From Paracoccaceae bacterium (GTDB taxonomy: Bacteria > Pseudomonadota > Alphaproteobacteria > Rhodobacterales > Rhodobacteraceae): a stretch of DNA of 52,544 bases. Under the pieces are notes generated by a model. The model was not told the DNA's origin and ran no database searches. It saw only the letters and a list, made by a program, of their open reading frames with translations. Shown piece by piece: positions 54 through 49,066 of this stretch (the stretch's first letter is position 1; each line of letters begins with the position of its first letter). Location of the stretch: positions 1-52,544 of the forward strand of contig JAHRVG010000078.1 of NCBI GenBank assembly GCA_019090795.1. Direction: 5' to 3'. A program made the position numbers and the translations under genes.

Positions 54-3000
54 GTAACAAGCGAGTAAGGACCAGTCGAACGCGCGTGGATTTTGTCGTC
101 AACAAGGTGGTGCAGTTTGAGCAGGTATTTCACACCCACAGTCACCGGGCGGGCGAATTGCTCTCCTGTCCGGCCATCAAACACGATGGACTGACCAGAA
201 GTAGCAAAACCGGCACGGCGCAGCGCGTCGTTCACGTCTTCTTCTTTTGCACCATCAAAAACAGGCGTTGCGATTGGAACACCACGAGTCACATTGCCCG
301 CTGCCTCTAGGAACTCATCCTGAGACATTTCTGACAAGCTTTGCGCGTAGATTTCATCGCCGTAGGCGATTCTCATGGATTCTTGAACCGGAGTCATATC
401 GCCGGATCGGCGGTATTCCTTCAGAGACTCACCAATGCTTTCGCCCAAGCCGCGAGCAGCCCAACCCATATGGGTTTCCAAAATCTGGCCCACATTCATA
501 CGTGAAGGCACACCAAGCGGGTTCAGACAGAAATCAACAGGTGTACCATCCGCAAGGAACGGCATATCCTCTTGTGGAACAACGCGGGAAATAACCCCTT
601 TGTTGCCGTGACGACCAGCCATTTTATCACCCGGTTGCAGCTTGCGCTTCACCGCGATGAAGACTTTAACCATCTTCATCACACCCGGAGGCAGATCGTC
701 GCCACGACGGACCTTGTCAACTTTGTCTTCAAAACGTGCTTCCAGCGATTTCTTCTGGATTTCGTATTGCGTGTTCAAAGCCTCAATTTCTGTCGAGTCC
801 GCATCATCGGCAATCGCCAACTGCCACCACTGACCGCGAGACAGGCTATCGAGCAGATCCTCGTCAATCATCGAACCGGAACGAACACCTTTGGGGCCTT
901 TGACGGCCTCTTTGCCCAGAACGAGGGTTTTCAGACGCGCATAGATGTTGCGGTCCAGAATGCCCATTTCATCGTCACGATCACGTGACAGGCGTTCGAC
1001 TTCTTCACGCTCAATTTGCAAGGCGCGTTCGTCTTTTTCAATACCATGACGGTTGAAAACACGAACCTCTACCACAGTACCGTAATCTCCGGGCGGCAGG
1101 CGCATGGAGGTATCCCGTACATCAGATGCTTTTTCACCAAAGATGGCGCGCAGCAGTTTTTCCTCTGGCGTCATCGGGCTTTCGCCTTTGGGGGTGATTT
1201 TACCTACCAGAATGTCGGCCGGGCCAACCTCGGCACCAATGTACACGATACCGGCTTCGTCCAGATTGCGCAGCGCTTCTTCGCCCACGTTCGGAATATC
1301 ACGGGTGATTTCCTCTGGTCCCAGTTTCGTATCACGGGCCGCAACCTCAAATTCCTCGATGTGGACCGAGGTAAAGACGTCGTCTTTCACAATCCGTTCG
1401 GAAATCAGGATGGAGTCCTCGTAGTTATAGCCATTCCACGGCATAAACGCGACGAGGATGTTTTTACCCAAGGCCAATTCACCCAGATCGGTGGACGGAC
1501 CATCAGCAACAACTTCGCCTTTGGACACGCGGTCGCCAACTTTCACCAGCGGACGCTGGTTGATGCAGGTGTTTTGGTTCGAACGCTGGAACTTACGCAG
1601 ACGGTAAATATCCACACCCGGATCACCCGGCATCAGATCCTCGGTCGCACGCACAACGATACGCATCGCGTCAACTTGGTCGATGATACCACCACGGCGC
1701 GCGGTAATCGCAGCGCCAGAATCCCGTGCCACGACTTCCTCGATACCCGTACCCACGTAAGGCGCTTCCGCCTTAAGCAGTGGAACTGCTTGTCGTTGCA
1801 TGTTCGAACCCATCAACGCGCGGTTAGCATCGTCGTTTTCAAGGAATGGGATCAAGGATGCCGCAACAGAAACCAACTGCTTGGGTGAAACGTCGATATA
1901 ATCAATGTTTTCCGGAGCGGTCAGTGTGTATTCACCCGATTTCCGAGAGGAAGCCAGATCATTCATGAACTTGCCGTTCTCATCCAACTGAGCGTTGGCC
2001 TGCGCCACAGTATAGCGCATTTCCTCGGTTGCAGACATGTATTGAACGTCGTCAGTCACAACAGCGTTGTCCACACGACGATAAGGCGTTTCAATGAAGC
2101 CATATTTATTCACCCGTGCATAGGACGCAAGGCTGTTGATCAAGCCAATGTTCGGGCCCTCAGGCGTTTCAATCGGGCACATACGACCATAGTGGGTTGG
2201 ATGCACATCGCGCACCTCAAAGCCGGCACGTTCGCGGGTCAAACCGCCAGGGCCAAGCGCAGACAGGCGACGTTTGTGGGTCACCTCGGACAGCGGGTTA
2301 GTTTGGTCCATGAACTGCGACAGCTGTGAGGAGCCAAAGAATTCACGCACCGCAGCAGCGGCAGGTTTGGCGTTGATCAAATCTTGCGGCATGATTGTGT
2401 CGATTTCAACACTGCTCATACGTTCCTTGATCGCGCGTTCCATACGCAGCAGGCCAACACGATACTGGTTTTCCATCAGCTCACCAACCGAGCGCACACG
2501 ACGGTTGCCGAGGTGGTCAATATCGTCAATGCCGCCTTTGCCATCACGCAGACCAACGAGGGCCTTAACAACGGCGATGATGTCTTCTTTACGCAGGGTG
2601 CGTTGGGTATCAGCGGCATCCAGTTGCAGGCGCATATTCATTTTGACCCGGCCAACAGCCGACAGATCGTAACGATCTTTGTCAAAGAACAGCGTGTCAA
2701 ACAGCGCAGAAGCAGCGTCAACCGTGGGTGGCTCACCTGGGCGCATCACGCGGTAAATATCCATCAGCGCAGTGTCACGACCATGGTTTTTATCGACAGC
2801 CATTGTATTGCGGATGTAGGGGCCAACGTTGATGTTGTCGATGTCCAGCGTTGGAATATCGGTCACGCCGTTTTCCAGCAACAGCGGAATCGTGCCGCCG
2901 TTGACATTGCCCTCTTTATCGTACTCGAATGTCAGCTCATCGCCCGCTTCGACCCAGATTTCACCGGTTTCTTCGTTGATGATATCTTTGGAAACGTAAC

Positions 3001-3916
3001 GGCCGGCAATTTCTTCAAATGGCACCAGAACTTCGGTGACTTTGCCGTCGTCGATCAGCTTTTTAACTGTCCGTGGCGTAATCTTTTTACCGGCTTCGGC
3101 AATCACTTCGCCGGATTTGGCGTCAATGACATCAAAAATTGGTTTCGTTCCGCGAATCCGGTCTGGGAAGAATTTGGTTGCCCAACCGTTTTTCTTCTTG
3201 ATCATCCGGTAATTAACGGTGTCGTAATAAGCGTCGCAGATGTCTTCCTGAGTCAGACCCAGAGAATACAGCAAAGTGGTTACTGGCAATTTCCGCCGAC
3301 GGTCGATGCGGGCAAAAACGATGTCTTTGGCATCGAACTCGAAATCCAACCAAGAGCCGCGATAGGGTATAATCCGCGAGGCAAACAGCAGCTTGCCGGA
3401 CGAATGGGTTTTGCCTTTGTCGTGGTCAAAGAACACACCGGGTGAACGGTGCATTTGCGAAACAATCACACGCTCGGTACCGTTTACTACGAATGTACCA
3501 TTGTGGGTCATCAAAGGCATGTCGCCCATGAATACGTCTTGTTCCTTGATATCCTTAACTGAACGCGCGCCTGTGTCTTCGTCCACATCAAACACGATCA
3601 AACGCAAGGTCACCTTAAGTGGCGCAGAGTAAGTCATGTCGCGTTGCTGACATTCCTCCACGTCATATTTCGGCTTTTCCAGCTCGTATTTCACAAATTC
3701 CAGAACCGAGGTTTCGTTGAAATCCTTGATCGGGAATACCGATTGGAAAACACCCTGGATTCCGTTGCCGTCCGTTGGAACGGGCGCCTCACCAGAGCGT
3801 AGAAACAAATCATAGGAACTTTTCTGAACCTCGATCAAATTTGGCATTTCCAGCACTTCACGGATATGACCGTAATATTTGCGGATACGTTTTTGACCTG
3901 AATGCGTTTGGGGCAT
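54..3916 (-). CDS. rpoB: DNA-directed RNA polymerase beta subunit, 3' end cut off by contig end
   Basis: RpoB forms most of one pincer of the core RNA polymerase clamp and part of the active centre, and carries the rifampicin pocket. About 1287 residues are visible, starting [17 protein letters not shown]. The family is usually near 1380 residues in this group, so roughly the last 90 are missing because the insert ends at base 54. The rifampicin region is clear, with [12 protein letters not shown] followed by [14 protein letters not shown], and no known resistance substitution is apparent. The [10 protein letters not shown] segment and the [10 protein letters not shown] motif near the active site are also present. 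The gene is last in the secE-nusG-rplKAJL-rpoB series here, and rpoC would be expected next, off the contig. It lies 244 bases after rplL, separated by a hairpin. Confidence 0.98.
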
Positions 3917-15795: not shown

Positions 15796-16565
15796 CTATG
15801 CCGATTGCGCTGCGTCCGGTTTATACCCAAAAGAGCTTTCGATCAGGTGCTTTGTGTAAGGATGCGCGGGGTTCATTGCGCGCACGTCCTCGACTGTCAG
15901 AACCTCAACGATCTCGCCATTCTGCATCACTGCCGTAGCATCGCACATATGGGCCACTACCGCGAGGTTATGGGACACCATCAGATAGGTCAGTTTGTGC
16001 TCTGCCCGCAAATCTGCCAACAAGTTCAACACCTCTGCCTGCACCGAAACATCCAGTGCGGATGTCGGTTCATCCAACAACAGTATGCTCGGTTCCGGCG
16101 CAAGAGCGCGGGCAATGGCAACCCGCTGGCGTTGGCCACCGGACAGCTGGTGCGGATAGCGAAAGCGAAAAGCGGCACCAAGACCACGTCATCCAGCAGC
16201 TTCATGATCCGCTTGTCAATGTCCTTGAAACCATGCAGCGACAGGGTTTCCCCAAGCACCTGATCAACCGAGTGACGCGGGTGCAAAGAGGCGTAGGGGT
16301 CCTAAAATACCATCTGCACATCTTTGTAGAATGCCTTGGGGCGTTTTAGTCCCAGTTTTAGATCCCCGATCTGCATGTCACCCGACCACGTAGGCACCAA
16401 GCCAACCAATGCCCGCAGGATAGTCGATTTTCCCGATCCACTCTCGCCTACCAAGCCAAAGCTGGCCCCGCTTGGCACATCAAACGTCGCATCCTTGACC
16501 GCATCCACGCGCTCGTCTTTTTCGCCAAACCAGACGTTGAGGTTGTTAATTTGAATGCGGCTCAT
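15796..16565 (-). pseudogene. Peptide ABC transporter ATPase (DppF type), disrupted
   Basis: The reading frame starts MSRIQINNLNVWFGEKDERV with a normal Walker A (GESGSGKST) but hits an amber TAG at 16302-16304. The TAG stands exactly where the Q-loop glutamine should be (MVF-stop-DPYASLHPR). Downstream a second lesion, loss of one G from a GGG run near 16184, shifts the frame just before the ABC signature. In the restored frame [40 protein letters not shown] and the C-terminus are intact. It would have energised dipeptide/oligopeptide import. Its ATG overlaps the preceding gene's stop (ATGA). With two lesions it cannot make a functional ATPase. Confidence 0.9.
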
Positions 16566-17340
16566 ATCCGACCACTCACACTTGGGGTTTCACTCCATTT
16601 CGGATCGCGTTGCAGCACCTCCAAACGGCTGTTAGGCGTGTCAATGCGGGGCAAAGAATTCAACAAGCCACGAGTGTAGGGGTGTTTGGCCTCGTGAAGT
16701 CTGCCTGCGTCGCAAACCTCGACCACACGTCCCGCATACATAATTAATACCCGATCGCAAAAAGACGCCACAAGGTTCAAATCATGGCTGATAAAGATCA
16801 GCCCCATGCCGCGATCAGGATTTTCGGTTCCGTCACCAGCATCATCGCAATCATAATCCGCTGTCCCATGCCGCCGGACATCTCGTGGGGATAGGATTTC
16901 ATCACCCTGAGGGGATCACGAATGGAAACCGCCTCAAGCATCTCAACCGCCTTGGCAAAGGCCGTTTTGCGCGATGCGCCCGTATGAAAGCGATAAATCT
17001 CCATGATCTGGTTGCCCACATTCATCACCGGATTAAGCGAAAATTTGGGGTCTTGCATTACCATCGAAATTTCTTGCCCGCGCTCGCCCTGCATCTGCTT
17101 TTCGGTCATCGCCAACAAATCTTGGCCGTGCAATTCCATCCGGTCTGCCGACACCCAGCCCGGTTTGCGGATCAGGCGCAGAATAGCGCGCCCGGTCATG
17201 GATTTACCGGAACCACTCTCGCCGATAATACCAAGGCGTTCTTGGCCAAGGGTGAAAGAAATCCCCCGCACCGCCTCAAATTCCCCTTGCCGCGTGGGGA
17301 AGGTGACGGTCAGGTTTTCAATATCCAGCAGATTGCTCAT
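16562..17340 (-). pseudogene. Peptide ABC transporter ATPase (DppD type), internal deletion
   Basis: The first 180 codons read as a normal DppD-type ATPase: MSNLLDIENLTVTFP, Walker A GESGSGKS, Q-loop MVMQDPKFSLNP, and the signature region HEMSGGMGQRIMIAMML. Reading stops shortly after PKILIA, where Walker B (DEPTSALD) should follow. The sequence instead jumps to the segment GMGLIFISHDLNLVASFCDRV, which is normally some 26 residues further on and is in another frame. About 80 bases are lost, with GCGG shared at the junction (16808-16812). Walker B and the D-loop are gone, so the protein cannot hydrolyse ATP. The start overlaps the upstream permease stop by four bases. Confidence 0.9.
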
Positions 17341-18193
17341 GACGATCCCCCTTCTTTCGGGTCCAGCACATCGCGTAACCCGTCGCCCAATAGATTAAAG
17401 CCAAGTGAAACCGTAAAGATCGCAAGGCCGGGCACAGTAGCAACCCACCAGTGGTCGAGGATAAATTTGCGCCCCTCGGAAATCATCGCCCCCCATTCAG
17501 GGCTGGGCGGTTGTGCACCAAGGCCAAGGAAACCAAGGCCCGCTGCTGCCAAGATCACCCCCGCCATATCCAGCGTCACCCGCACGATTAGCGATGAAAT
17601 GCACAGCGGCCAGATATGTTTGGTGATGATGCGAAATGCACCCGCGCCTTGCAGTTTCACCGCCGCGATATAATCCGAGTTGCGAATGGTCAGCGTTTCC
17701 GCCCGCGCAATCCTCGCATAGGGCGGCCAAGCAGTCAGGGAGATCGCCAGAACAGCGTTTTCAATGCCCGCGCCCAGAGCAGCGACAAAGGCGAGTGCCA
17801 GAACAAGGCGGGGAAAGGCAAGAAAGATATCGGTGATCCGCATCAGAACTGCATCGACTATGCCACCAGCGTCACGATATACAGGGTGATCCGCGAACCA
17901 TAGATCACGCGGCTCAACAAATCGCGCCCAAGGCTGTCGGTCCCCAGAATATGGCCATCCGCCCCCATCGGCTGCGAGCGTCCGATCAGGTTTTGCTCAA
18001 ACGGATCATGGGGCGATATCAGCGGGGCAAAGGCGGCCATTAACAGTAACAGAACCAAAATTCCCAATCCGACCATCGCCATGGTATTGGCACGCAGCGT
18101 CAGCCAGCCGGAATAGGCCGCTGTAAATCGCGCGTGGCGGCGCGAGGTAGGCGTGTCGGTCATCAACCAGTCGCGTAAACTTTGGTCAGCCAT
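17337..18193 (-). pseudogene. Peptide ABC transporter permease (DppC type), internal deletion
   Basis: The N-terminal 110 codons encode a DppC-type permease with its cytoplasmic lead, the first membrane helix and the GTDSLGRDLLSRVIYGSR motif. The frame then ends at LYIVTLVA-stop. Reading resumes in another frame with VDAVLMRITDIFLAFPRLVL, followed by the EAA loop region and the remaining helices to the end. The stretch normally in between (a Gly-rich turn before the second helix, around 15-20 residues) is absent at about 17855-17862, so a short out-of-frame deletion broke the gene. One-base coupling to dppB upstream and ATGA coupling to the ATPase downstream are preserved. Confidence 0.88.
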
Positions 18194-19203
18194 TATTTCG
18201 CCCTCGGATCAAACACGCGGTACAGTAGGTCAGAGAAAATATTCAGCAGCACAATGATCAGCCCCACAACGATTGTCCCCCCCAGCACTGCGTTCATATC
18301 CGCAGACAACAGGGCGGTGGTGATTTATTGACCAATGCCCGGCCACGAGAAGATAATTTCCGTCAGAACCGAGCCTTCCAACAGGTTCGCATAACTCAGC
18401 GCAATGACGGTCACCAGTTGTACCTTGATGTTCCCAAAGGCATGTCGCCAAACAACGGTGCGTTCAGGCAGGCCTTTGACCCGCGCAGTGGTGATGTATT
18501 CCGCGCTCAGCTGTTCCAGCATGAACGAGCGGGTCATGCGGCTGATGTAAGCCATGGAATAATAAGCGAGGATCGAGGAAGGTAAAATGATATGGCTGAG
18601 CGCGTCTTTGAACACGGTCCAGTTGCCATCAATGATGCTGTCGAGCAGGATCATGCCCGTTACCGTAGGTACTTCGTCCACATAGAAAATGCCCACACGG
18701 CCCGGGCTACCGACCCAGCCTAGAATTCCGTAAAAGACCAACAGACCCATAAGACCCAGCCAGAAAATCGGCATGGAATAGCCAACCAGTGCCACAACGC
18801 GGGCGATTTGGTCGATCCATGTGTCGCGCTTTACCGCCGCCAGAACACCCAGTGGTACGCCAAGAGTTACCCCAAAAATCGTGCCCAGTGCTGCCAGCTC
18901 TAGCGTGGCGGGGAAAACCCGTCTGATGTCTTCGGCAACAGGGCGGCCATTCAGCAGCGACATGCCAAAATCGCCATGCAGCACATCCCAAATGTAGATA
19001 AAAAATTGAACAATAATTGGCTTGTCCAGCCCCATCGCCGCATAAGCTTCGTCATAGGTGGATTTGCTTGCCTGCTCGCCCACAATGGACAGAACCGGAT
19101 CAATTGGCATAACCCTGCCAATAATAAAGGTCACAAATGCCAACCCCAGCATTGTAATCAAGATCGACCCGATGGTCTTGCCGATCAGGATCAGGACGGG
19201 CAT
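18193..19203 (-). pseudogene. Peptide ABC transporter permease (DppB type), nonsense mutation
   Basis: The permease reads normally from MPVLILIGKTIGSILITM through six-helix DppB-type sequence, including NGRPVAEDIRRVFPATLELA and the EAA-like loop MTRSFMLEQLSAEYITTARVKGL. A TAA occurs at 18325-18327, right after SWPGIGQ, where Tyr (TAC/TAT) is usual. The remaining frame, ITTALLSADMNAVLGG to the true end at 18193 (FDPRAK), is otherwise intact and in frame. The lesion removes the last membrane helix. Read-through is conceivable, but given the state of the neighbouring genes it is most simply a dead gene. Confidence 0.88.
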
Positions 19204-19231
19204 GGAAAGGGGCGACTTGCGCCGCCGAGGT

Positions 19232-20426
19232 TCAGGTTGGAAACGCTTGCGCGAAAGTATTTTGCAAGGATTGCGAAATCTCGATCCGCTCTTGCGCTTC
19301 ACGCACGCCAACCTCTATTTCAAGACCACTTACGCCAGCGCTTGCCAGAAATTCTTTGGCTTTGGCAATGTTCAGGCTGAACGGGCTTTCGTTGACCGCA
19401 CCAAGATATGTTGCAGGCAAGAAATTCTGATGAACCGTGTACTGACCTTTAAGGAAGCTGTTTTGCATACCCTCGTAATCCACCAGATATTTGATGGCTT
19501 GGCGCACCTCTGGTTTCGACAAAACAGGGTGTTTCTGGTTCAAGGAAATATACATCAAACGACCGCGCAGAGCACTATCAATTGCGATGCCATCTTTGCC
19601 GGAAATGCCCGTCACATCATCTGGGTTCAGGTTACGGGCCACATCAATATCGCCGCGTTCCAGCATCAGACGTTGGGTGGAACTTTCCTGAACGTGACGC
19701 ACGATCACCCGTTCCATTGCTGGTGCACCTTGATAGAAATCTTGGTTGGATTTCAGAGTCACAGCGTCATTTGGCTTCCAGCTCACCAGTGAATAAGCAC
19801 CGGAACCCGCGGTGTGAGTCTTCAGCCATGTGTTGCCCATGTCGCCGTCCGCGGCGTTCGCCATCACGGTTTTCATGTCAACAATACCGCCAATGGTCGA
19901 GGTCAGACAGTTCAACACGAAAGACGTAGCATAGCGTTTATCGGTGGTGATGGAAACGGTATTCCCATCTGCCTTGATCATGTCCATCGCATTGTCGGCG
20001 GTAAAGCCAAACTGCGTCAGAATGAAGGACGGGGTTTTGTTCAGGATCACTGCGCGTTGCAGCGACCAAGCTGCGTCTTGCACTGTCACTGGGTTGCCCG
20101 AATGGAATTTCACTCCGGTACGCATGGTGAAGGTGATGGTTTTACCATCTTGGGAAACGGGCCAGCTCTCGGCCAGATCGGGCTGATAGCCCGCGTCAAG
20201 GTTTAGTGGATCAAAGTTGATCAGTTTACCATAGACATTGCGGCTAACGTCGGAACCCGCGAACTCAAAGCTTTCAGCAGGATCAAGGGTGGTGATGTCG
20301 TCAATTCGGAATCCGGTTAGCAATCACCAACATGTTGGCAGGCGTTTCAGCTGCCACAGGCATCGCCGTCATACTGACCACAAATCCCATAACCACTGTG
20401 GCCGTAATATTTCTGAATGGTTTCAT
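19232..20426 (-). pseudogene. Peptide ABC transporter substrate-binding protein (DppA type), broken at both ends
   Basis: The start ATG (20424-20426) has AGAGGA upstream and a good signal peptide (MKPFRNITATVVMGFVVSM to PVAAE). The mature part begins ANMLVIANRI and then meets TGA at 20301-20303. A 7-base near-duplication (CGGATTC next to CGAATTG) has shifted the frame. In the other frame the family continues normally: DDITTLDPAESFEFAGSDVSRNVYGKL, then KTITFTMRTGVKFHSGNPVTVQDAAWSL, and so on to LQNTFAQA. After that it runs out within four residues and meets sequence just upstream of the permease. Roughly the last 150 residues of a normal SBP_bac_5 protein are missing. Confidence 0.9.
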
Positions 20427-20479: not shown

Positions 20480-21565
20480 TCAATTACTCCAGGTTTTATC
20501 CAGCACCCGCAGCCAGTTTTCATGGCATAGTTTTTTCATCAGGGCGCTGTTATAACCCTGTGCTTTCATCGCGTCGCGCAGGTTGTTCAACCCGGCCACG
20601 TCGGTAATCTCCTCGGGCATCATCGCACCGTCGAAATCCGATCCCAAACCGACACGATCTTCTCCCAGCCGCTCTATCAAGTGATCCAGATGCCGCAGCA
20701 TGGTTTCTAACGGCACATCCGGCTTCATTTGCCCGTCAGCGCGCAAAAAAGCACAAGCATAATTCAGCCCGACCATGCCGTCACTTTCCGCGATTGCATC
20801 CAGTTGTTTATCCGTCAGATTGCGCGCGTGGGGACAAATGGCATGAACGTTGGAATGGGTCGCCACCAGCGGCGCATTGCTGTGCTTGGCCACATCCCAG
20901 AAACCAGCCTCGTTCAAATGCGACAGATCCAGCATCACGCCCAGTTGATTGCAACGTTTCACCAACCGCAGGCCCGCATCCGTCAGCCCCGGCCCGATGT
21001 CGCCGTCAGAGGGATATTTGAACGGCACGCCATGGCCAAATATCGTTGATCTGCTCCAGACTGGCCCCAGTGAGCGCAGGCCTGCAGAATAGAGAACCTC
21101 AAGCGCGTGCAAATCCGGATCAATCGCCTCTGCTCCTTCCATGTGCATGATCGCTGCCATCTTGCCGCTGGCAAAACAGCCACGCAGATCGTCGGTTGTA
21201 TGGCAAATTTTCAGCGCGCCCATTTCCTGCAACTGCAACAAGATTGCAATTTCCTTGAGAATGACGGGCAAAGCTTGGGCCTGTTCCATCAAAGGGGGCA
21301 TAGCGATGTCGTATGCCGCGCGATTCATCTCGTCGTATCTCTCGGCGGCGGTCTTGTCGATGTCGCTTTGGGACAGCACAAACAGCGCAAAAAAACCGCC
21401 GCCAAAACCACCGATTTTGGCGCGTGGAATATCTATTTGCCCTTTACCACCGGAAACAAATGACTGCACGGCATCCGGTGCATCGTTCATCAGCAACTTG
21501 AGCAGCACATCGTTGTGCCCGTCGAAAATCAGTGGTTCATTTTGCAAGGGCAATGGCGACTCCAT
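20480..21565 (-). CDS. Membrane dipeptidase, peptidase family M19
   Basis: The 361-residue zinc dipeptidase (renal dipeptidase-like) would cleave dipeptides, including ones with a D-residue at the second position. The metal site is complete: FDGHND (His17, Asp19), HMEGAEA (Glu143), the later ATHSNVHAICPHARNLTD segment, and GSDFDGAM near the C-terminus. The length is normal for bacterial M19 and I see no lesion. It is the first gene of the minus-strand unit that leads into the broken peptide transporter, 53 bases upstream of it. Without a signal peptide it would act in the cytoplasm on imported dipeptides. Confidence 0.93.
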   Translation of the reverse strand: MESPLPLQNEPLIFDGHNDVLLKLLMNDAPDAVQSFVSGGKGQIDIPRAKIGGFGGGFFALFVLSQSDIDKTAAERYDEMNRAAYDIAMPPLMEQAQALPVILKEIAILLQLQEMGALKICHTTDDLRGCFASGKMAAIMHMEGAEAIDPDLHALEVLYSAGLRSLGPVWSRSTIFGHGVPFKYPSDGDIGPGLTDAGLRLVKRCNQLGVMLDLSHLNEAGFWDVAKHSNAPLVATHSNVHAICPHARNLTDKQLDAIAESDGMVGLNYACAFLRADGQMKPDVPLETMLRHLDHLIERLGEDRVGLGSDFDGAMMPEEITDVAGLNNLRDAMKAQGYNSALMKKLCHENWLRVLDKTWSN

Positions 21566-21571
21566 TTTTTT

Positions 21572-21600
21572 ACCTAATGAACAAAGTTATCACTTTAGGT
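21572..21600 (-). promoter_or_regulatory. Inverted repeat upstream of the dipeptidase, candidate operator
   Basis: ACCTAA (21572-21577) and TTAGGT (21595-21600) flank a 17-base centre that itself contains AAAGT-TATC-ACTTT. The element lies 6 bases upstream of the M19 start codon, a position suited to a repressor or to a 5' UTR hairpin. No regulator gene is adjacent. It is seen in the sequence, and the role is inferred. Confidence 0.4.
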
Positions 21601-21686
21601 GAAATAGCAAGTGATTCCAGAACTATCACGCCAAATAGTTCTCGCGCTTAGAGCGTAAGGCAAGCAAGTTAATCAATCACATTGTT

Positions 21687-33842: not shown

Positions 33843-34160
33843 CCAGCTACCGCTGTTATGAAAGATCTAAGCTGGGCATCCCGCATGTCCCAGTTACATT
33901 ATTGTCTTGGCGCCGGAAATGCCGTGAACAAACGAGACACTGCTGAGTGTATTGCAGAACGGGGAATCAATTTTCTGAAGCAGAAATCAGCTGGATAAGT
34001 CGTAATATGCACTATAATTCATCACTGATTACAGCCCGCCTATACGCATAACTTATTGTTTTAAAGTATTTTAAAAACTTAATTTCGGTAAAGTTTCATC
34101 TTGGTGAAAAAGTTTTGAGGTATTATAATGCAAACAACAGCATTGACGGGGAGCAGCCAT
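33843..34160 (+). promoter_or_regulatory. Upstream region of the box operon, with candidate operator
   Basis: These 318 bases hold no convincing gene. The last 150 bases before boxC are very A/T-rich and end in TGAGGT and GGGGAGC ribosome-binding sites for two possible starts (34128, 34161). At 34064-34080 lies a 17-base near-perfect palindrome, AAGTATTTTAAAAACTT (7 of 8 pairs match). TGCA tetramers occur at 33953 and 34008. BzdR, a relative of BoxR, is known to use TGCA-containing operators, so these are candidate sites, but I cannot assign them. Confidence 0.4.
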
Positions 34161-35822
34161 ATGACCAGCCGAATTGAGTTCCAAAAAGACCCAGAAAAAT
34201 ACCGCCACTGGCGGGTTGAGTATGATGGTGATGTGGCAACCCTGTTTATGGACGTGGACGAGGATGGCGGGCTGTTTGAGGGCTATCAACTCAAATTGAA
34301 CTCTTATGATTTGAGCGTCGATATCGAACTGGCCGATGTGGTGCAGCGGATGCGGTTTGAGCATCCCGAAGTGCGCGCGGTTGTCATGCGCTCTGGCAAG
34401 GACAACGTGTTTTGTGCTGGGGCCAACATTCGGATGCTGGGCGGTGCAGAACATGCGCATAAGGTTAATTTTTGTAAATTCACCAATGAGACCCGCAACA
34501 CCTTCGAAGCGGCGGGCGCTGAATCTGGTCAGCCTTATATTTGTGCGGTCAAAGGGGCCTGTGCTGGGGGTGGCTATGAATTGGCGCTGGCCTGCGATTA
34601 TATCATGTTAACTGACGATGGCACCTCTAGCGTTGCCTTGCCCGAAGTACCATTACTGGCGGTCCTGCCCGGTACTGGCGGGTTGACCCGGATCACCGAC
34701 AAACGCAAAATGCGCCGCGATCTGGCGGATATTTTCTGCTCGACCGAGGAAGGCGTGCGTGGACCAAAAGCACTGGCATGGCGGCTGGTAGACGAGGTGG
34801 TTCCCAATGCAAAGTTCGATCAGGTTGTGGCCGAGCGGGCAACGGAATTCGCCGCTAAGTCTGCACGCGCCAAACCGGCGGTGGGTATCAAGCTAAAGCC
34901 GCTACAACGCAAAATAGACGACAACGGATCATTGAGCTATTCCTGTGTTGAGGTTGATATCAACCGGTCGGCCGGACTGGCTAGCATCACTATTTCAGGC
35001 CCAGATCAGCCTGCCCCAAATTCGATTGAGGCGCTGCATAGCGAGGGCGCAGACAACTGGATGCTGCGTTGCGCCCGGGAGCTGGACGATGCTTTGTTGC
35101 AACTGCGGTTCAATGAATTGGAAATCGGGGTTTTAACGTTCAAAACGGCTGGTGACGGTGAACTGGTTGCCGCCCACGAGAAGCTTTTGCTGGACAACAG
35201 TGATGGCTGGCTCGCTCAGGAAATCCTGCTGTACTGGAAGCGGGTTTTGAAACGGGTAGACCTGACCTCCCGCTCACTTGTGGCGCTGGTTGAGCCGGGT
35301 TCCTGTTTCGTTGGAACATTGGCGGAACTGCTGTTCGCGGTCGATCGATCCTATATGGCGATGGATGAATTCGAAGGCGACAACCGCCCTATAGCCACCA
35401 TTCAACTGACTGCCGCAAATTTTGGCCTCTATCCGATGTCGAACGACCTGACCCGCCTGCAAACGCGATTTCTGGGCACTCCGGAGGCTGTGGACGCGGC
35501 AGAGGAAACCAAAGGTCAGATGCTGGAAGCAGAGGCCGCAGATACGCTGGGTTTGGTGACATTTGCCTATGACGACATCGACTGGGAAGACGAGATTCGA
35601 GTGTTTCTGGAGGAACGCACCAGTTTCTCGCCGGACTCGCTCACAGGGATGGAGTCAAACTTGCGATTCCCGGGGCCGGAAACAATGGAAACACGTATTT
35701 TCGGGCGATTGACCGCTTGGCAAAACTGGATATTCCAGCGCCCGAACGCAGTTGGGGAAAAGGGCGCTTTGCAGCGCTATGGAACTGGAGTTCGCGGCGA
35801 GTACGACAAACGCCGTGTTTGA
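34161..35822 (+). CDS. boxC: Benzoyl-CoA-dihydrodiol lyase / 2,3-epoxybenzoyl-CoA dihydrolase BoxC
   Basis: BoxC opens the ring of 2,3-epoxybenzoyl-CoA with two waters, giving 3,4-dehydroadipyl-CoA semialdehyde and formate. The 553-residue protein is an extended crotonase-fold enzyme with signature stretches DGGLFEGYQLKLNSYDLSVDIEL, FCAGANIRMLGGAEHAHKVNFCKFTNE, and GACAGGGYELALACDY. It also has LPEVPLLAVLPGTGGLTRITDKRK. The start at MTSRIEF gives the usual N-terminus (RIEFQKDPEKYRHW), while an ATG 11 codons upstream (34128) also has a ribosome-binding site and cannot be excluded. boxB follows after 22 bases. Confidence 0.95.
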   Translation: MTSRIEFQKDPEKYRHWRVEYDGDVATLFMDVDEDGGLFEGYQLKLNSYDLSVDIELADVVQRMRFEHPEVRAVVMRSGKDNVFCAGANIRMLGGAEHAHKVNFCKFTNETRNTFEAAGAESGQPYICAVKGACAGGGYELALACDYIMLTDDGTSSVALPEVPLLAVLPGTGGLTRITDKRKMRRDLADIFCSTEEGVRGPKALAWRLVDEVVPNAKFDQVVAERATEFAAKSARAKPAVGIKLKPLQRKIDDNGSLSYSCVEVDINRSAGLASITISGPDQPAPNSIEALHSEGADNWMLRCARELDDALLQLRFNELEIGVLTFKTAGDGELVAAHEKLLLDNSDGWLAQEILLYWKRVLKRVDLTSRSLVALVEPGSCFVGTLAELLFAVDRSYMAMDEFEGDNRPIATIQLTAANFGLYPMSNDLTRLQTRFLGTPEAVDAAEETKGQMLEAEAADTLGLVTFAYDDIDWEDEIRVFLEERTSFSPDSLTGMESNLRFPGPETMETRIFGRLTAWQNWIFQRPNAVGEKGALQRYGTGVRGEYDKRRV

Positions 35823-35844
35823 TAACTGACTTAAGGAGACCGAA

Positions 35845-37296
35845 ATGGCCGGAATAATGGACGTAAGTTACGACACACAAATCCCGAATAACATTGGACT
35901 TTCCAGTGATAGAAGGGTCTTGAAGGCGCTGGAAAAATGGCACCCCGGTTATATTGACTGGTGGAAAGGCAGTGGTCCTGACGGATTTCTGGAGGATCTG
36001 GTTTACCTGCGTACAGCGGTAAGCGTTGACCCTAAGGGCTGGGCCAAGTTTGACTATGTAAAGATGCCGGATTACCGCTGGGGAATTTTGCTGGCACCAC
36101 AGGTTGAGGGGCGCATTATTCCTTGCGGTCAACACCTTGGCGAACCTGCTTGGCAAGAAGTTCCGGGCGAATATCGCTCGCTTATGCGCCGTTTGATTGT
36201 TATTCAGGGCGACACTGAACCAGCCTCTGTAGAACAACAGCGGTTCTTGGGTAAAACCGCCCCATCGCTCTATGATATGCGTAACCTGTTTCAAGTGAAT
36301 GTTGAAGAAGGCCGCCACCTTTGGGCCATGGTTTACCTGTTGCAAAAATACTTTGGCGCTGATGGTCGCGAAGAAGCGAACGAGCTGTTAAAACGTCAAT
36401 CCGGTTCCGAGGAGAAACCCCGGATGCTGGGTGCGTTTAACGAAGAAACGCCGGATTGGCTGTCGTTCTTCATGTTCACCTATTTCACCGACCGTGACGG
36501 CAAAATGCAGCTGGAAGCACTGGCGCAATCAGGCTTTGATCCGCTGTCCCGCACCTGCCGCTTTATGCTAACCGAAGAAGCACACCACATGTTTGTGGGT
36601 GAAACCGGCGTAGGCCGCACCATTCAACGCACCTGCGAAGCAATGAATGCAGCGGGAATAACTGACCCCTATGACATCGACAAAATCCGTGCTTTGGGCG
36701 TGATTGACCTACCTACCATCCGCAAGAAAATGAACCTGCATTACACCCTGTCACTGGATCTTTTCGGCCGCGAAGTATCGACCAACGCGGCCAACGCGTT
36801 CAACGCGGGTATCAAGGGGCGTTACCAAGAGGTTAAGATCGACGACGATCACCAATTGCAAGACGCGACTTATGCGGTTTCGGAATTCACCGGCGGCCAG
36901 ATTTTGGTCAAAGATGTGCCCGCCCTGACCGCCATCAACATGCGCCTGCGCGATGATTATTCCCGCGACGCTGCCGGTGGTGTGAAGCGCTGGAATGCGA
37001 TTATCAAAAAACACGGAATCGACTTTGCTCTGGAACTGCCTCACGAAGGTTTCCATCGCAAGATTGGCGTGTTTGAAGGCGCGCCGATTACACCGGATGG
37101 TCTCGTTATTACTTCTGACGAATGGGCCGCACGTCGCGACGAGTGGTTGCCTTCCAAAGCCGATGGCGATTTCATCCAGTCTCTGATGGTAGCTGTGCAT
37201 GGTCCCGGCGAATACGCAGGCTGGATCGCCCCCCCTCGCGTTGGTATCGACAACAAACCCGGCGATTACGAGTACGTGAAGCTTTATATGGCCTAA
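35845..37296 (+). CDS. boxB: Benzoyl-CoA 2,3-epoxidase, diiron oxygenase subunit BoxB
   Basis: BoxB is the oxygenase component that epoxidises benzoyl-CoA using O2 and electrons from BoxA. The 483-residue protein carries the diiron helices: FQVNVEEGRHLWAMVYLLQKYFG (Glu, Glu-x-x-His) around residue 150 and RFMLTEEAHHMFVGETGVGR around residue 240. KMNLHYTLSLDLFGREVSTNAA follows. Length and conserved ends (DYEYVKLYMA) match the family. It has an AAGGAG ribosome-binding site. It is translated from the same message as boxC. Confidence 0.96.
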   Translation: MAGIMDVSYDTQIPNNIGLSSDRRVLKALEKWHPGYIDWWKGSGPDGFLEDLVYLRTAVSVDPKGWAKFDYVKMPDYRWGILLAPQVEGRIIPCGQHLGEPAWQEVPGEYRSLMRRLIVIQGDTEPASVEQQRFLGKTAPSLYDMRNLFQVNVEEGRHLWAMVYLLQKYFGADGREEANELLKRQSGSEEKPRMLGAFNEETPDWLSFFMFTYFTDRDGKMQLEALAQSGFDPLSRTCRFMLTEEAHHMFVGETGVGRTIQRTCEAMNAAGITDPYDIDKIRALGVIDLPTIRKKMNLHYTLSLDLFGREVSTNAANAFNAGIKGRYQEVKIDDDHQLQDATYAVSEFTGGQILVKDVPALTAINMRLRDDYSRDAAGGVKRWNAIIKKHGIDFALELPHEGFHRKIGVFEGAPITPDGLVITSDEWAARRDEWLPSKADGDFIQSLMVAVHGPGEYAGWIAPPRVGIDNKPGDYEYVKLYMA

Positions 37297-37309
37297 CGGC
37301 CCCGACCAG

Positions 37310-37335
37310 AAACGGGGGCATCAGTGCCCCCGTTT
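37310..37335 (+). terminator. Perfect hairpin between boxB and boxA
   Basis: AAACGGGGGCA (37310-37320) and TGCCCCCGTTT (37325-37335) make an 11-bp perfect stem with a TCAG loop, starting 13 bases after the boxB stop. The tail GATACAA is not a T-run, so it looks more like a message stabiliser or partial terminator that lowers boxA relative to boxB than a full stop. Confidence 0.7.
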
Positions 37336-37361
37336 GATACAATTTCGCGACGGAGCCAGCC

Positions 37362-38558
37362 ATGACCACAGCCACCAAACAACATCTGATCGACCCGGAA
37401 CTGTGCATTCGCTGCTATACTTGCGAGGAAATTTGCCCGATAGATGCGATCACCCATAATGACGACAATGTCGCGGTTGATGCATCAATTTGCGACAACT
37501 GCATGGATTGCATTTTGCCCTGTCCCACAGGGTCTATTGACGAATGGCGGGTAGTGGAAACGCCCTATTCTCTGGACGAACAGTTTGAGTGGATGGAACT
37601 GCCGGAACAAGAGGACTTCACCAATGTTTCCAACGGGTCCGAAGGCACAATCGAAGCAATTGACGAGAGCATCACCGCCCTTCTGAATGAGGCGCATCAA
37701 GGCGCTGGTGGCAAATCCAATGCCCCTGCTTCCGCCTCAAAACCAGCGATCAACCTGTATTCTCCAAACCATCCGGTAGAAGCAACCGTGCAAGGCAATT
37801 TCCGCCTGACAGAGCAAGGAGCGGATGCGGATATCCGCCATATCATCCTTAATCTAGGTGCCAATAAATTCCCGCTGCTAGAGGGCCAAACCGTTGGTAT
37901 CACCCCCCCCGGCATCGCCAAGAATGGCAAACCTCACATGCCTCGGCTGTATTCCGTTTCCAGCCCTCGGGATGGAGAACGCCCTAACACCAACAACCTG
38001 TCGCTGACGGTCAAACGCGAGGAACAGGGGATTTGTTCCAACTATATTTGCGATTTGGAAAAGGGCGCCAAAGTGCAGCTTTGCGGCCCGTTTGGCAGTA
38101 CCTTCTTGATGCCGGATGACCCGCAGGCCAAGCTGATTATGATTTGCACCGGCACCGGCTCTGCCCCGTTTCGCGGCTTTACCATGCGTCATCAGCGGGT
38201 GATGCCTGAAATCAACGGGGTTATGCATCTATTTTTTGGCGCGCGCACTGCGGATTCTTTGCCCTATTTCGGACCGCTAAAAAAAGTTCCACAGCATTTT
38301 TTGACCAAGCATTTTGCCTTGAGTCGTGAACCTGACACACCCAAGCAATACGTGCAGGATCGGCTGTGGGCCGCACAAGACAGTATTGCGCCTATGCTGG
38401 CCGAACCGACAACCTACATCTATCTCTGTGGTCTCAAAGCCATGGAAGACGGCGTTGAGGAGGCACTTACCAAGATCGCTGCGGCAACGGGCCAGAACTG
38501 GCTGGAGATCCGCGATACAATGCGGGAAACAGGACGCTATCACGTAGAAACATACTAG
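37362..38558 (+). CDS. boxA: Benzoyl-CoA epoxidase reductase subunit BoxA
   Basis: BoxA passes electrons from NADPH to the diiron oxygenase BoxB. The 398-residue protein fuses a two-cluster ferredoxin domain (CIRCYTCEEICP near residue 15 and CDNCMDCILPCP near residue 45) to a ferredoxin-NADP+ reductase domain. The latter shows RLYSVSSPRDG for FAD binding, CTGTGSAPFRGF for NADPH, and ends with RYHVETY. A variable acidic linker lies between (about 70-130). The start at MTTATKQ follows CGGAG. Confidence 0.95.
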   Translation: MTTATKQHLIDPELCIRCYTCEEICPIDAITHNDDNVAVDASICDNCMDCILPCPTGSIDEWRVVETPYSLDEQFEWMELPEQEDFTNVSNGSEGTIEAIDESITALLNEAHQGAGGKSNAPASASKPAINLYSPNHPVEATVQGNFRLTEQGADADIRHIILNLGANKFPLLEGQTVGITPPGIAKNGKPHMPRLYSVSSPRDGERPNTNNLSLTVKREEQGICSNYICDLEKGAKVQLCGPFGSTFLMPDDPQAKLIMICTGTGSAPFRGFTMRHQRVMPEINGVMHLFFGARTADSLPYFGPLKKVPQHFLTKHFALSREPDTPKQYVQDRLWAAQDSIAPMLAEPTTYIYLCGLKAMEDGVEEALTKIAAATGQNWLEIRDTMRETGRYHVETY

Positions 38559-38563
38559 CGGCA

Positions 38564-38588
38564 CGCGCACTCTGGTTCAGAGTACGCG
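38564..38588 (+). other. boxA-boxR intergenic hairpin
   Basis: ACTCTG and CAGAGT form a 6-bp stem with a 3-base loop. After one mismatch, CGCG/CGCG adds four more pairs. It lies six bases after the boxA stop and 26 bases before the boxR start. There is no T-run. A role in tuning the amount of regulator relative to enzymes is a guess. Confidence 0.4.
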
Positions 38589-38614
38589 CAAGCTGCGCGA
38601 GGAATAACAAATCC

Positions 38615-39538
38615 ATGAGCGAAATTGTGACATTCAAGGGTCTGGTAACTTCGCCTTCGGCGGGAACTGAGCTTGATGACTCGCAAGTTTCGCAATTTCT
38701 ACTGCTGGTAGGCAACCGTGTGCGCAAGGCCCGTGGCCGAAAGGGAATGTCGCGGCGGGTTTTGTCTGAAACATCCGGTGTGTCACAACGCTATCTGGCA
38801 CAGCTGGAAACAGGGCAGGGCAATATTTCAATCGGGTTGTTACTGCGAATAGCGGATGCGCTGGATTTTGGCATTGAATGGCTTGTCGGTCAGGATGATC
38901 CATGGGGTTCCGACATCTCTCGCGCCAGTTATTTGTTGCAAAGTGCCACCCGAAAACAGCGAGAACAGGTGTTTGAAATTCTGGAACCTGCGCGGGCCGA
39001 CCAGAACAAGGCAAGCAGGATCGCGATAATCGGGTTACGCGGTGCTGGCAAATCAACACTTGGCAGGTTAGCCGCGCAGCATCTGCGAATGCCTTTTTTA
39101 GAATTGAATGACGAAGTTGAGGATTCCAGCGGGATGCCGGTAACTGAGGTTATCGCGCTTTATGGTCAGGAAGGCTATCGTTTGTTGGAACATCAGGCGG
39201 TTGAACGGGTTGTTGCCACCCATAGCTCTGTGATACTCGCGATTGCCGGGGGCATTGCCGCGCAGCCGGATACGTTCAATTACCTGTTGGCAAATTACCA
39301 CACTATCTGGCTGCGGGCAGAACCTGAAGAACACATGCAGCGAGTGCGCGCGCAAGGCGATGAGCGGCCCATGGCGGGCAGCCCAAATGCGATGAACGAG
39401 CTGCGCAAAATCTTGACCAACCGAGAAGAACAGTATCGCCGTGCAGATGCAAAAGTAGACACCTCAAACGCCACGGTAGAGCAAAGCTTAAGTGCCTTGA
39501 TCAGCGTTATAAACGATACTGCTTTCTTTTCTGGATAG
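38615..39538 (+). CDS. boxR: BoxR/BzdR-type transcriptional regulator (XRE HTH plus shikimate-kinase-like domain)
   Basis: The 307-residue regulator begins with an XRE helix-turn-helix (about residues 28-88: GNRVRKARGRKGMSRRVLSETSGVSQRYLAQLETGQGN). It continues as a shikimate-kinase-like P-loop domain (IAIIGLRGAGKSTLGRLAAQHL around 133-155). Known BoxR/BzdR proteins of this architecture repress box/bzd genes until benzoyl-CoA binds the C-terminal domain. The Walker A lysine is retained, although kinase activity is not expected. It is the last gene of the box unit on this strand and ends 6 bases before the convergent matB gene. Confidence 0.93.
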   Translation: MSEIVTFKGLVTSPSAGTELDDSQVSQFLLLVGNRVRKARGRKGMSRRVLSETSGVSQRYLAQLETGQGNISIGLLLRIADALDFGIEWLVGQDDPWGSDISRASYLLQSATRKQREQVFEILEPARADQNKASRIAIIGLRGAGKSTLGRLAAQHLRMPFLELNDEVEDSSGMPVTEVIALYGQEGYRLLEHQAVERVVATHSSVILAIAGGIAAQPDTFNYLLANYHTIWLRAEPEEHMQRVRAQGDERPMAGSPNAMNELRKILTNREEQYRRADAKVDTSNATVEQSLSALISVINDTAFFSG

Positions 39539-39544
39539 ACTTTT

Positions 39545-41071
39545 TTAATTAGTTCCCAGTCCTTTATAGGTTTCTCTTAAAGCATTCTTTTGCACCTTGC
39601 CCATCGTGTTACGTGGCAATTCGTCAACGATCACGATATGGCGAGGTTGTTTGAACCTCGCAAGATTTTCACGCAGCGCATCAGCGATATCCTCAGGCTT
39701 TAGAACCGCCCCGTTTTGGGGGACAACGATCGCAGTGACGGCCTCGCCAAAATCGGCATCGGGTACTGCGATCACCGCGCTCTCGTTTACGCCGGGCAGA
39801 TCATCAATCAATAATTCTACCTCTTTGGGATAGACGTTATAGCCACCTGTGATGATCAAATCCTTGTCACGACCAACAATCTGCACATAGCCCTGATCAT
39901 CAACCAGACCCAAATCACCCGTAATGAAAAACCCATCGTCGCGCAATTCGGCTGCGGTTTTTTCCGGCATCTTCCAGTAGCCTGCGAACACATTATCGCC
40001 ACGTACTTCCAGCACGCCGATCTCGCCTTGGGCCAGTTCAGCGCCGGTTTTCGGGTCACATACTTTTAGTTCAACACCAGGCAGGGGGAAACCAACAGTG
40101 CCCGCACGCCGGGCCCCAACGTATGGGTTCGATGTATTCATATTGGTTTCGGTCATACCATAGCGTTCCAGAATGGCGTGACCGGTTTGGGCACGCCATT
40201 GGTCATGGGTTTCCGCCAGCAGCGGCGCAGACCCAGAAACAAACAGGCGCATACCGCGCGCGGCATCAGGCAGGCCATGGGTCTGCAATAGACGCACATA
40301 AAAGGTCGGCACCCCCATCAAAGCCGTGGCTTGCCCCATGTAATCACGCACCGTTTCCGCATCAAAATTGGGCAGGAAAATCATTGATCCCCCCGCCATC
40401 ATCGTCACATTGGTGGCAACAAACAAACCGTGGGTATGAAAGATCGGCAAGGCATGGATCAGCACATCGTCACGGGTGAAATGCCAGTAGTCTTTGAGCA
40501 CTTGCGAGTTGGATGCAAGTGCACGGTGGGTCAACATCGCCCCTTTGGAACGACCTGTAGTTCCAGAAGTATAAAGGATGGCAGCTAGATCATCAGCCAT
40601 GCGGGCAACGGGATGAAAGCCCGATTGTTGTGCATTGCGCTGATCCGTGAGGGTTCCTGTCTCATCCGCTGCAATCGTCCAAATCTCGGAGACACCCGCT
40701 TGTTGCGCAACGGGCGTCAGTTTGGCCAGATTTACCGGATCGCAAACCAGTAAATTCGGGCCGGCGTCTTGCAGAAAATAGGCCACTTCGGAGGCAGTGT
40801 AGCCCGTGTTGAGTGGTAAAAAAACAGCCCCCGCCAGCACCGCACCGACATAGAGTTCCAGTACAGCCACAGTTTTCGGAACTTGCACCGCAATGCGATC
40901 ACCTGGTTTAATACCTGCGGCTACCAGCGCCGCCGCCATCCGTTCTGCATTGGCGAAAAACGCGCCGTAACTCTGAGTTTCCCCAGTCTGATGGTTCAAT
41001 AGCAGGTGCGCATCATTGCGCCCGATACTTGCTGCACGCAGGGCGCAGGCAAGGTGGTTTTCACTGTACAT
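39545..41071 (-). CDS. matB: Malonyl-CoA synthetase (malonate-CoA ligase)
   Basis: The 508-residue AMP-forming ligase makes malonyl-CoA from malonate, CoA and ATP. It has the adenylation motifs YTSGTTGRSKGAMLTH near residue 165 and FITGDLGLVDDQGYVQIVGRDKDLII. The C-terminal lysine motif is PRNTMGKVQK. The segment ERYGMTETNMNTSNPY is the hallmark that separates MatB from fatty-acyl and benzoate ligases. So this is not the benzoate-CoA ligase that the box pathway would need. The amidase gene is immediately upstream, with its stop one base before this ATG. Confidence 0.9.
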   Translation of the reverse strand: MYSENHLACALRAASIGRNDAHLLLNHQTGETQSYGAFFANAERMAAALVAAGIKPGDRIAVQVPKTVAVLELYVGAVLAGAVFLPLNTGYTASEVAYFLQDAGPNLLVCDPVNLAKLTPVAQQAGVSEIWTIAADETGTLTDQRNAQQSGFHPVARMADDLAAILYTSGTTGRSKGAMLTHRALASNSQVLKDYWHFTRDDVLIHALPIFHTHGLFVATNVTMMAGGSMIFLPNFDAETVRDYMGQATALMGVPTFYVRLLQTHGLPDAARGMRLFVSGSAPLLAETHDQWRAQTGHAILERYGMTETNMNTSNPYVGARRAGTVGFPLPGVELKVCDPKTGAELAQGEIGVLEVRGDNVFAGYWKMPEKTAAELRDDGFFITGDLGLVDDQGYVQIVGRDKDLIITGGYNVYPKEVELLIDDLPGVNESAVIAVPDADFGEAVTAIVVPQNGAVLKPEDIADALRENLARFKQPRHIVIVDELPRNTMGKVQKNALRETYKGLGTN

Positions 41072-47903: not shown

Positions 47904-48941
47904 CTACACCGCAGCCGTCCAAAACCGATAGCGCGCCTGCCCCGTTACCTCCCGCACCAACCCGCGACCTTGGAGAAGTGCTAGATTACGCTGGGCGGAA
48001 ACCTTGGAAACACTGGTCGCGTTCACCACCATTTCAACCGAAACAAGCGGATACTGAAGCAGAGCTTCCAACAAAATTGGGGGTGTTCGGCCTGATAGAT
48101 CGTTAGTCTTGAGGCCCGCATGAATATACCAATCCGCAAGCCGGTCCAGATGCAACAACGCCCGCTTGCATGCGTTGTCTATTGCCACAAACCACAGTGG
48201 CAGAAGTTTCTCCGCCTTCCCGCTTTGCCCAAATAGATACTTATCCCCCAAGGCCACCGGCAAAAAAGATAACTCAAAAAAGCCCGCCTCTTTAGTCGCA
48301 GAAGACACAGCTGCCATGGGTTCAAGCACCGCACCCGGCTCGGACACTCCCAACAACCGCCAACTAAAAACCCCGACCGCCGCCCTTGTCAGAAAATGCA
48401 AATGTACGGACTGGTCCTGAAGCGCATACCACTGTTTTTCCAGTCGCTCGAAATCTTTGCCAAAGGGGCGTTTCCCCATTTCTGCCAAACCGTCGCTATC
48501 GGCCTCATGGCGCCCTAAAAACCGGGCCAGCCCGTTGTCGGGCCCTCGAGGTGACATCAATCGCCGCAACGCCCAGTCAGCCTGAGATAGAATGCGCGCA
48601 TTCTGCACGGTAGATAGCCGCAAACTTCGATACAACGCGAGTTTTTCCGGTGCTACCCAATCCCCTTGTGCCCAAAGCTGATCCGCCACTTCCATCAATG
48701 CCAAACGCTCGCATAACCCTTTTGGCCCCCAGCGCAGCCTTTCATCCAGACGGGCAATGCCGGCGGCAGCAACCGCCAGTTGCTGTCCCAAAACAGTTTC
48801 AGCACGCTCCCATTCAGTCACATCAAATTGTGGCCCGCGCAGTTCAACAGGCCAAGGCGGATCGGTTGGGGCCATGTCTTCCGGTGGCCCGGGCAGGAAC
48901 CAAAGATCATCATCGGAATCAGAATTGTCAGATACAGGCAT
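47904..48941 (-). CDS. DUF1612 / HTH-domain protein
   Basis: The 345-residue protein resembles the alphaproteobacterial DUF1612 family. It has a helical N-terminal part (residues 50-130, including GIARLDERLRWGPKGLCERLALMEVADQLWAQG) and a C-terminal winged-helix region (about 285-345, YPLVSVEMVVNATSVSKVSAQRNLALLQGRGLVREVTGQARYRFW). It probably binds DNA. Many relatives are encoded on plasmids and phages, and the function is not established. The N-terminus is acidic and low-complexity (SDNSDSDDD), and no ribosome-binding site is obvious. It is divergent from the large secreted protein across 125 bases. Confidence 0.65.
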   Translation of the reverse strand: MPVSDNSDSDDDLWFLPGPPEDMAPTDPPWPVELRGPQFDVTEWERAETVLGQQLAVAAAGIARLDERLRWGPKGLCERLALMEVADQLWAQGDWVAPEKLALYRSLRLSTVQNARILSQADWALRRLMSPRGPDNGLARFLGRHEADSDGLAEMGKRPFGKDFERLEKQWYALQDQSVHLHFLTRAAVGVFSWRLLGVSEPGAVLEPMAAVSSATKEAGFFELSFLPVALGDKYLFGQSGKAEKLLPLWFVAIDNACKRALLHLDRLADWYIHAGLKTNDLSGRTPPILLEALLQYPLVSVEMVVNATSVSKVSAQRNLALLQGRGLVREVTGQARYRFWTAAV

Positions 48942-49066
48942 TGGTTTGCGCTTTTAGAAACAAGAGACAAGGCATTTCTAGCGGCAATTTTTCACCCTGT
49001 CTGCCCTATCTCAGGCATATCCCCTGCTTTTTCCTTTTGGTTTTCAGTTTTTACCGCCATATTCCT

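What the first reader, a model, noticed from the sequence alone, without database searches (positions are those of the whole stretch)
15796..20426. Every gene of a five-gene peptide ABC operon is independently broken
Reading the minus strand gives at least seven separate lesions: a 7-base near-duplication and a lost 3' end in dppA; a TAA in dppB; a short internal deletion in dppC; a larger one in dppD that removes Walker B; and an amber codon plus a one-base loss in dppF. The translational-coupling overlaps between the genes are still in place, so the decay is recent on the operon scale. Point changes, small indels and deletions are mixed, which is unlike assembly error. The M19 dipeptidase gene at the head of the same unit is intact. 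This looks like loss of dipeptide uptake with retention of dipeptide hydrolysis.
Basis: partly seen in the sequence, partly recalled or inferred. Interest (0 to 1): 0.75.

Follow-up and report, generated by a model that had tools for sequence, protein, structure and literature searches.

The report
Recently decayed peptide-importer operon, dipeptidase intact
A marine bacterium has recently lost a peptide-type importer, with all five genes broken and the neighbouring regulator gene gone, while the peptide-cutting enzyme next door is still intact; this looks like ordinary gene loss caught partway.

Summary
Against syntenic, intact operons in congeners, window 15796-20426 (minus strand) carries eight lesions, at least one in each of five genes: +7 bp in the binding protein; about 358 bp and 73 bp lost at its 3' end, the second also removing the next gene's start; a TAA; -58 bp; -79 bp, removing Walker B; a TAG; -1 bp. 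In a survey, 63 of 63 operon-bearing loci with enough flank have five near-full-length genes. Decay is recent: window-branch dN/dS of the broken genes is 0.069 (0.049-0.093), no higher than an intact relative's. The M19 dipeptidase is intact. 'Loss of dipeptide uptake' is too strong: the transporter meets no Dpp cut-off, and eight other loci of its binding-protein family remain, one with a complete ABC set. M19 without the transporter recurs (7 of 40 genomes), though some cases are paralogues. Best reading: neutral decay of a dispensable importer. Reads and conspecific strains were not available.

The parts
20480..21565 (-). M19 dipeptidase gene, intact, 361 aa
   Evidence: PF01244, 299.8 bits; 78% identical to two congeners; no change at 72 invariant sites
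21566..21686 (.). Spacer where five of seven congeners have a divergent LysR gene; LysR absent
   Evidence: single copy in the genome
19228..20426 (-). Remnant of the binding-protein gene (A)
   Evidence: 85% and 79% identical pieces to G030 A; PF00496
20306..20312 (-). +7 bp near-duplication in A; TGA follows at 20303-20301
19227..19247 (-). Junctions of about 358-bp and 73-bp deletions, end of A and start of B
18193..19224 (-). Remnant of permease gene B
   Evidence: 86% identical to G030 B from residue 11 on
18325..18327 (-). Internal TAA in B (residue 310 of 354 in G030)
17337..18193 (-). Remnant of permease gene C, 58 bp missing at 17872
16562..17340 (-). Remnant of ATPase gene D, 79 bp missing at 16810 (Walker B stretch)
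15796..16565 (-). Remnant of ATPase gene F: TAG at 16304-16302 and 1 bp missing near 16185

Best explanation
A recently pseudogenised peptide/nickel-type ABC importer operon in a marine Rhodobacteraceae species. The ancestor probably had a divergent LysR gene and an M19-A-B-C-D-F unit, as most relatives do. The importer became dispensable; the LysR gene was lost and small deletions, one small insertion and point changes accumulated in all five importer genes. M19 stays under constraint and probably still makes an active dipeptidase. Shown: the lesions, the intact relatives, the absence of LysR, no rise of dN/dS. Inferred: neutrality, order of events, M19 activity.
For: Eight lesions against intact congeners. 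63 of 63 operon loci with room are near full length. No LysR orthologue in the genome, best 28% identity, no remnant. Window-branch dN/dS 0.069 in A-F against 0.088 in the intact L052 branch, so the loss is late on the branch. 7 changes at 617 otherwise invariant sites in A-F, highest of 67 loci, median 1, and none in M19: the slight relaxation expected.
Against: No reads, no second strain, no expression data. dN/dS shows no relaxation by itself, and synonymous distances are near saturation. The lead in private changes is slim (7 against 6 for the next two) and comes after trimming alignment edges near lesions; untrimmed it was 13. 18 of 68 intact operons lack an adjacent LysR, including the congener G026, so LysR loss alone does not predict decay.
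Confidence: 0.87

Rival explanations
1. Selected rather than neutral loss: disabling the importer was favoured, for example because it let in a toxic peptide or was costly, and the other lesions followed.
For: Every gene and the regulator are hit; the loss is recent.
Against: Multiple lesions are equally expected under neutrality once the first has struck; no sign of selection was tested for.
Confidence: 0.12
2. Other importers cover the function, so the operon became redundant and peptide uptake persists. Compatible with the best explanation; it names the cause.
For: Eight other loci of PF00496; C14 has binding protein, two permeases and two ATPases.
Against: No orthologue of the lost permease remains; other full-length own-genome matches are about 30-34% identical. 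Substrates unknown.
Confidence: 0.35
3. Assembly or sequencing error.
For: No reads were seen; draft of 141 contigs.
Against: Mixed substitutions and deletions of 1 to about 358 bp concentrated in one operon; 47 of the 49 permease-domain matches in the genome have no internal stop.
Confidence: 0.03

Closest known systems
M19-ABCDF peptide/nickel-type importer operon of Rhodobacterales, e.g. L052 (same contig as G030), L055, L066
   Same: Same gene order and 79-92% protein identity of the surviving pieces to G030
   Different: There all five importer genes are intact and LysR is mostly adjacent; here all five are broken and LysR is absent
E. coli-type dipeptide importer DppABCDF
   Same: Same architecture: binding protein, two permeases, two ATPases
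   Different: Intact orthologues fall below the NCBIfam DppA, DppB and DppF cut-offs
M19 dipeptidases 3LY0 and 3FDG (recalled: from Rhodobacter sphaeroides, 3LY0 with an L-Ala-D-Ala mimic)
   Same: Full-length match, E about 1e-123
   Different: Substrate of the window enzyme untested
Pseudogenes of pelagic Roseobacter genomes (PMC12661815, passages read)
   Same: Pseudogene shares of 3.5-15.3% reported, so gene decay is common
   Different: Here a whole operon is caught mid-decay with one member kept; that paper's passages do not mention dipeptide or dipeptidase

Membership tests
Pseudogenised operon | Intact orthologues in relatives | tested here: met
Pseudogenised operon | Disabling lesion in each gene | tested here: met
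Pseudogenised operon | Relaxed constraint | tested here: inconclusive
   dN/dS not raised; slight excess of private changes
Pseudogenised operon | No functional product | not testable with these tools
   No expression or transport assay
DppABCDF dipeptide importer | DppA equivalog score, tested on the intact orthologue in G030 | tested here: not met
   96.9 against 1005 bits
Peptide/nickel-type ABC importer | SBP_bac_5, BPD_transp_1 and ABC_tran domains | tested here: met
   window pieces, intact orthologues
M19 dipeptidase | PF01244 match | tested here: met
   299.8 bits, cut-off 26
M19 dipeptidase | Metal and catalytic residues (identity recalled): H17, D19, E143, H216, H237, R248, D310 | tested here: met
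   Invariant; motifs aligned with renal dipeptidase for the seven-sequence profile (the first motif in a weak segment)
M19 dipeptidase | Dipeptide hydrolysis | not testable with these tools
   No assay

The most novel reading that the evidence does not exclude
This branch of M19 has a job inside the cell that does not depend on its partner importer, for example recycling of the cell's own D-residue dipeptides. Lineages therefore repeatedly shed importer and regulator while keeping the enzyme, and the window catches one such uncoupling in mid-course.
Probability: 0.25. Interest if true: 0.4.

Novelty: new member of a known kind. Interest (0 to 1): 0.2.

Why it matters
It is a clean snapshot of an operon dying while one member is kept, with intact relatives for comparison and evidence that the loss is recent. 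The recurrence of M19 without the importer in other Rhodobacteraceae makes an importer-independent role for this M19 branch testable. Otherwise it is ordinary gene loss.

Tried and rejected
A displaced LysR gene: rejected, best own-genome match 28% identity. A LysR remnant in the window: none at E below 0.1. The spacer as a repeated element: single copy. A promoter or terminator in the spacer: none by consensus scan (not evidence of absence). Similarity of the spacer to the relatives' loci: no hit in a short blastn, a weak test at this divergence.

L054 as an end point of the same decay at the same place: its M19 is nested in the operon clade but lies among different genes, so it is a separate loss or move. 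High private-change counts of L058 and L061 (16 and 12) fell when X residues were left out; L058 holds many X.

Orphan M19 genes are not all losses. Of the ten genomes behind M19-only loci, two have a close permease elsewhere (73% and 80%), two a 60-64% match, four only distant matches and two none at E 1e-30. G145 has an operon copy and a second M19. The absence calls rest on at most seven scored candidates per genome. Literature searches listed no paper on this operon; they cover only the held library and those terms.

Full report
What was given. The window is one whole contig (52,544 bp; contig length) of a 3.63-Mb, 141-contig draft genome estimated 100% complete. The nearest named relatives of the locus are Rhodobacteraceae MAGs, some labelled Amylibacter or Marinosulfonomonas.

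The observation. A search of 33 genomes of the genus found close permease orthologues (80-86% identical) in seven besides the window. Fetched with flanks, five show the complete order M19-A-B-C-D-F with open frames (G030, G026, G012, G021, G014); the contigs of G019 and G015 end inside the unit. The loss at the end of A resolves into about 358 bp and 73 bp; the 73-bp piece also takes the usual start of B and, read by eye, lies between similar GGCGGCGC-like stretches. The remaining frame of A stops after 41 codons. The TAG in F stands where the six relatives that reach this point have a glutamine codon.

Five congeners (G030, G019, G012, G021, G014) have a divergent 302-aa LysR gene beside M19, 57.8-93.7% identical to one another; G026 has another gene there, and G015 is cut. 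In the window 121 bp separate the upstream penicillin-binding-protein gene from M19. No LysR remnant is found and no orthologue exists in the genome (best 28% identity). The regulator, and probably its shared promoter region, is gone.

How unusual. Seventy carry ABC genes beside M19. LysR lies within 600 bp in 50 of the 68 with enough upstream flank. Nine have M19 with neither ABC genes nor LysR; one is cut. In 63 of 63 ABC-bearing loci with room downstream, all five genes match near full length in one piece. Six loci show a stop inside the match to F: in L068, L072, L084 and L105 before the likely start, in L058 and L096 at the end; L058 also holds many masked residues. So no second broken operon was seen in this set.

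How recent. On codons aligned to intact relatives, pooled A-F dN/dS on the window branch is 0.069 (bootstrap 0.049-0.093; 1,436 codons), against 0.088 (0.056-0.152) for the L052 branch; M19 on the window branch is 0.099 (0.042-0.180). Synonymous distances are near saturation, so these are rough. At sites invariant in the other sequences the window has 7 changes of 617 in A-F, the most of 67 loci (median 1, next 6), and none in M19. Before trimming of alignment edges near lesions the A-F count was 13. The broken genes still look like constrained genes with a small excess of odd changes, so the decay occupies only a late part of the branch.

The kept gene. M19 is full length, matches solved M19 dipeptidases 3LY0 and 3FDG at E about 1e-123, and keeps the residues recalled as metal ligands and catalytic. 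In the M19 tree the window is sister to L052 and L053, inside a clade that, apart from the orphan L054/G050, consists of operon-bearing loci (95/87, 97/86, 100/89).

Is it uptake loss? The intact orthologues miss the NCBIfam cut-offs for DppA, DppB and DppF; permease C passes one model, Opp2C, 303.7 against 300 bits (for the ATPases only the best 25 models were shown). The genome has eight other loci of the binding-protein family, and C14 carries a binding protein, two permeases and two ATPases. One importer of unknown substrate was lost, not peptide uptake in general.

Is uncoupling recurrent? In 296 family genomes (tallied by hand), 40 besides the window have an M19 of this branch at E 1e-137 or better. 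In 33 the permease lies beside it; seven have no permease match at E 1e-100 (G050, G131, G096, G176, G040, G293, G296), with at most seven candidates scored per genome. G050 is the contig of L054: its M19 is 79% identical and nested in the operon clade, and its genome has no such permease at E 1e-30. G176 groups with L126 and L130 inside another operon clade. Against a simple rule: two of ten M19-only genomes have a close permease elsewhere, some M19-only genes may be paralogues, and G194 shows the reverse, an M19 with an internal TAG beside near-full-length A-F matches. Within the genus M19 and this permease occur in the same eight of 33 genomes.

Context. Pseudogene shares of 3.5-15.3% are reported for pelagic Roseobacter clusters (PMC12661815, passages read), so a decayed transporter operon is an ordinary event.

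Verdict. A genuine, accurately described, recent pseudogenisation; the functional conclusion needs narrowing and the regulator loss should be added. Interest is low to moderate.

Noticed in passing
window 34128-41071: Neighbouring enoyl-CoA hydratase, PaaA_PaaC-like, ferredoxin-reductase-like, HTH plus shikimate-kinase and AMP-binding genes; as recalled, the layout of the aerobic benzoyl-CoA (Box) pathway.
   Followed up: no
window 48650-51988: 1,112-aa ORF with one weak RTX calcium-binding repeat match overlapping the HTH ORF at 47904-48941.
   Followed up: no
L139 (G194) 2695-3735: Reverse pattern: M19 with an internal TAG in its conserved DLSHLN motif beside near-full-length A-F matches and an adjacent LysR.
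   Followed up: partly
G000:C114:12653-13135: The one other permease-domain match in the genome with an internal stop, a TAG.
   Followed up: no
L123, L124: Two MAGs labelled Granulosicoccaceae carry the same M19-ABCDF unit; transfer or misbinning.
   Followed up: no
window 21566-21686: The spacer contains two short inverted repeats (AGAACTAT/ATAGTTCT and ATCACTT/AAGTGAT, by eye); single copy in the genome.
   Followed up: partly
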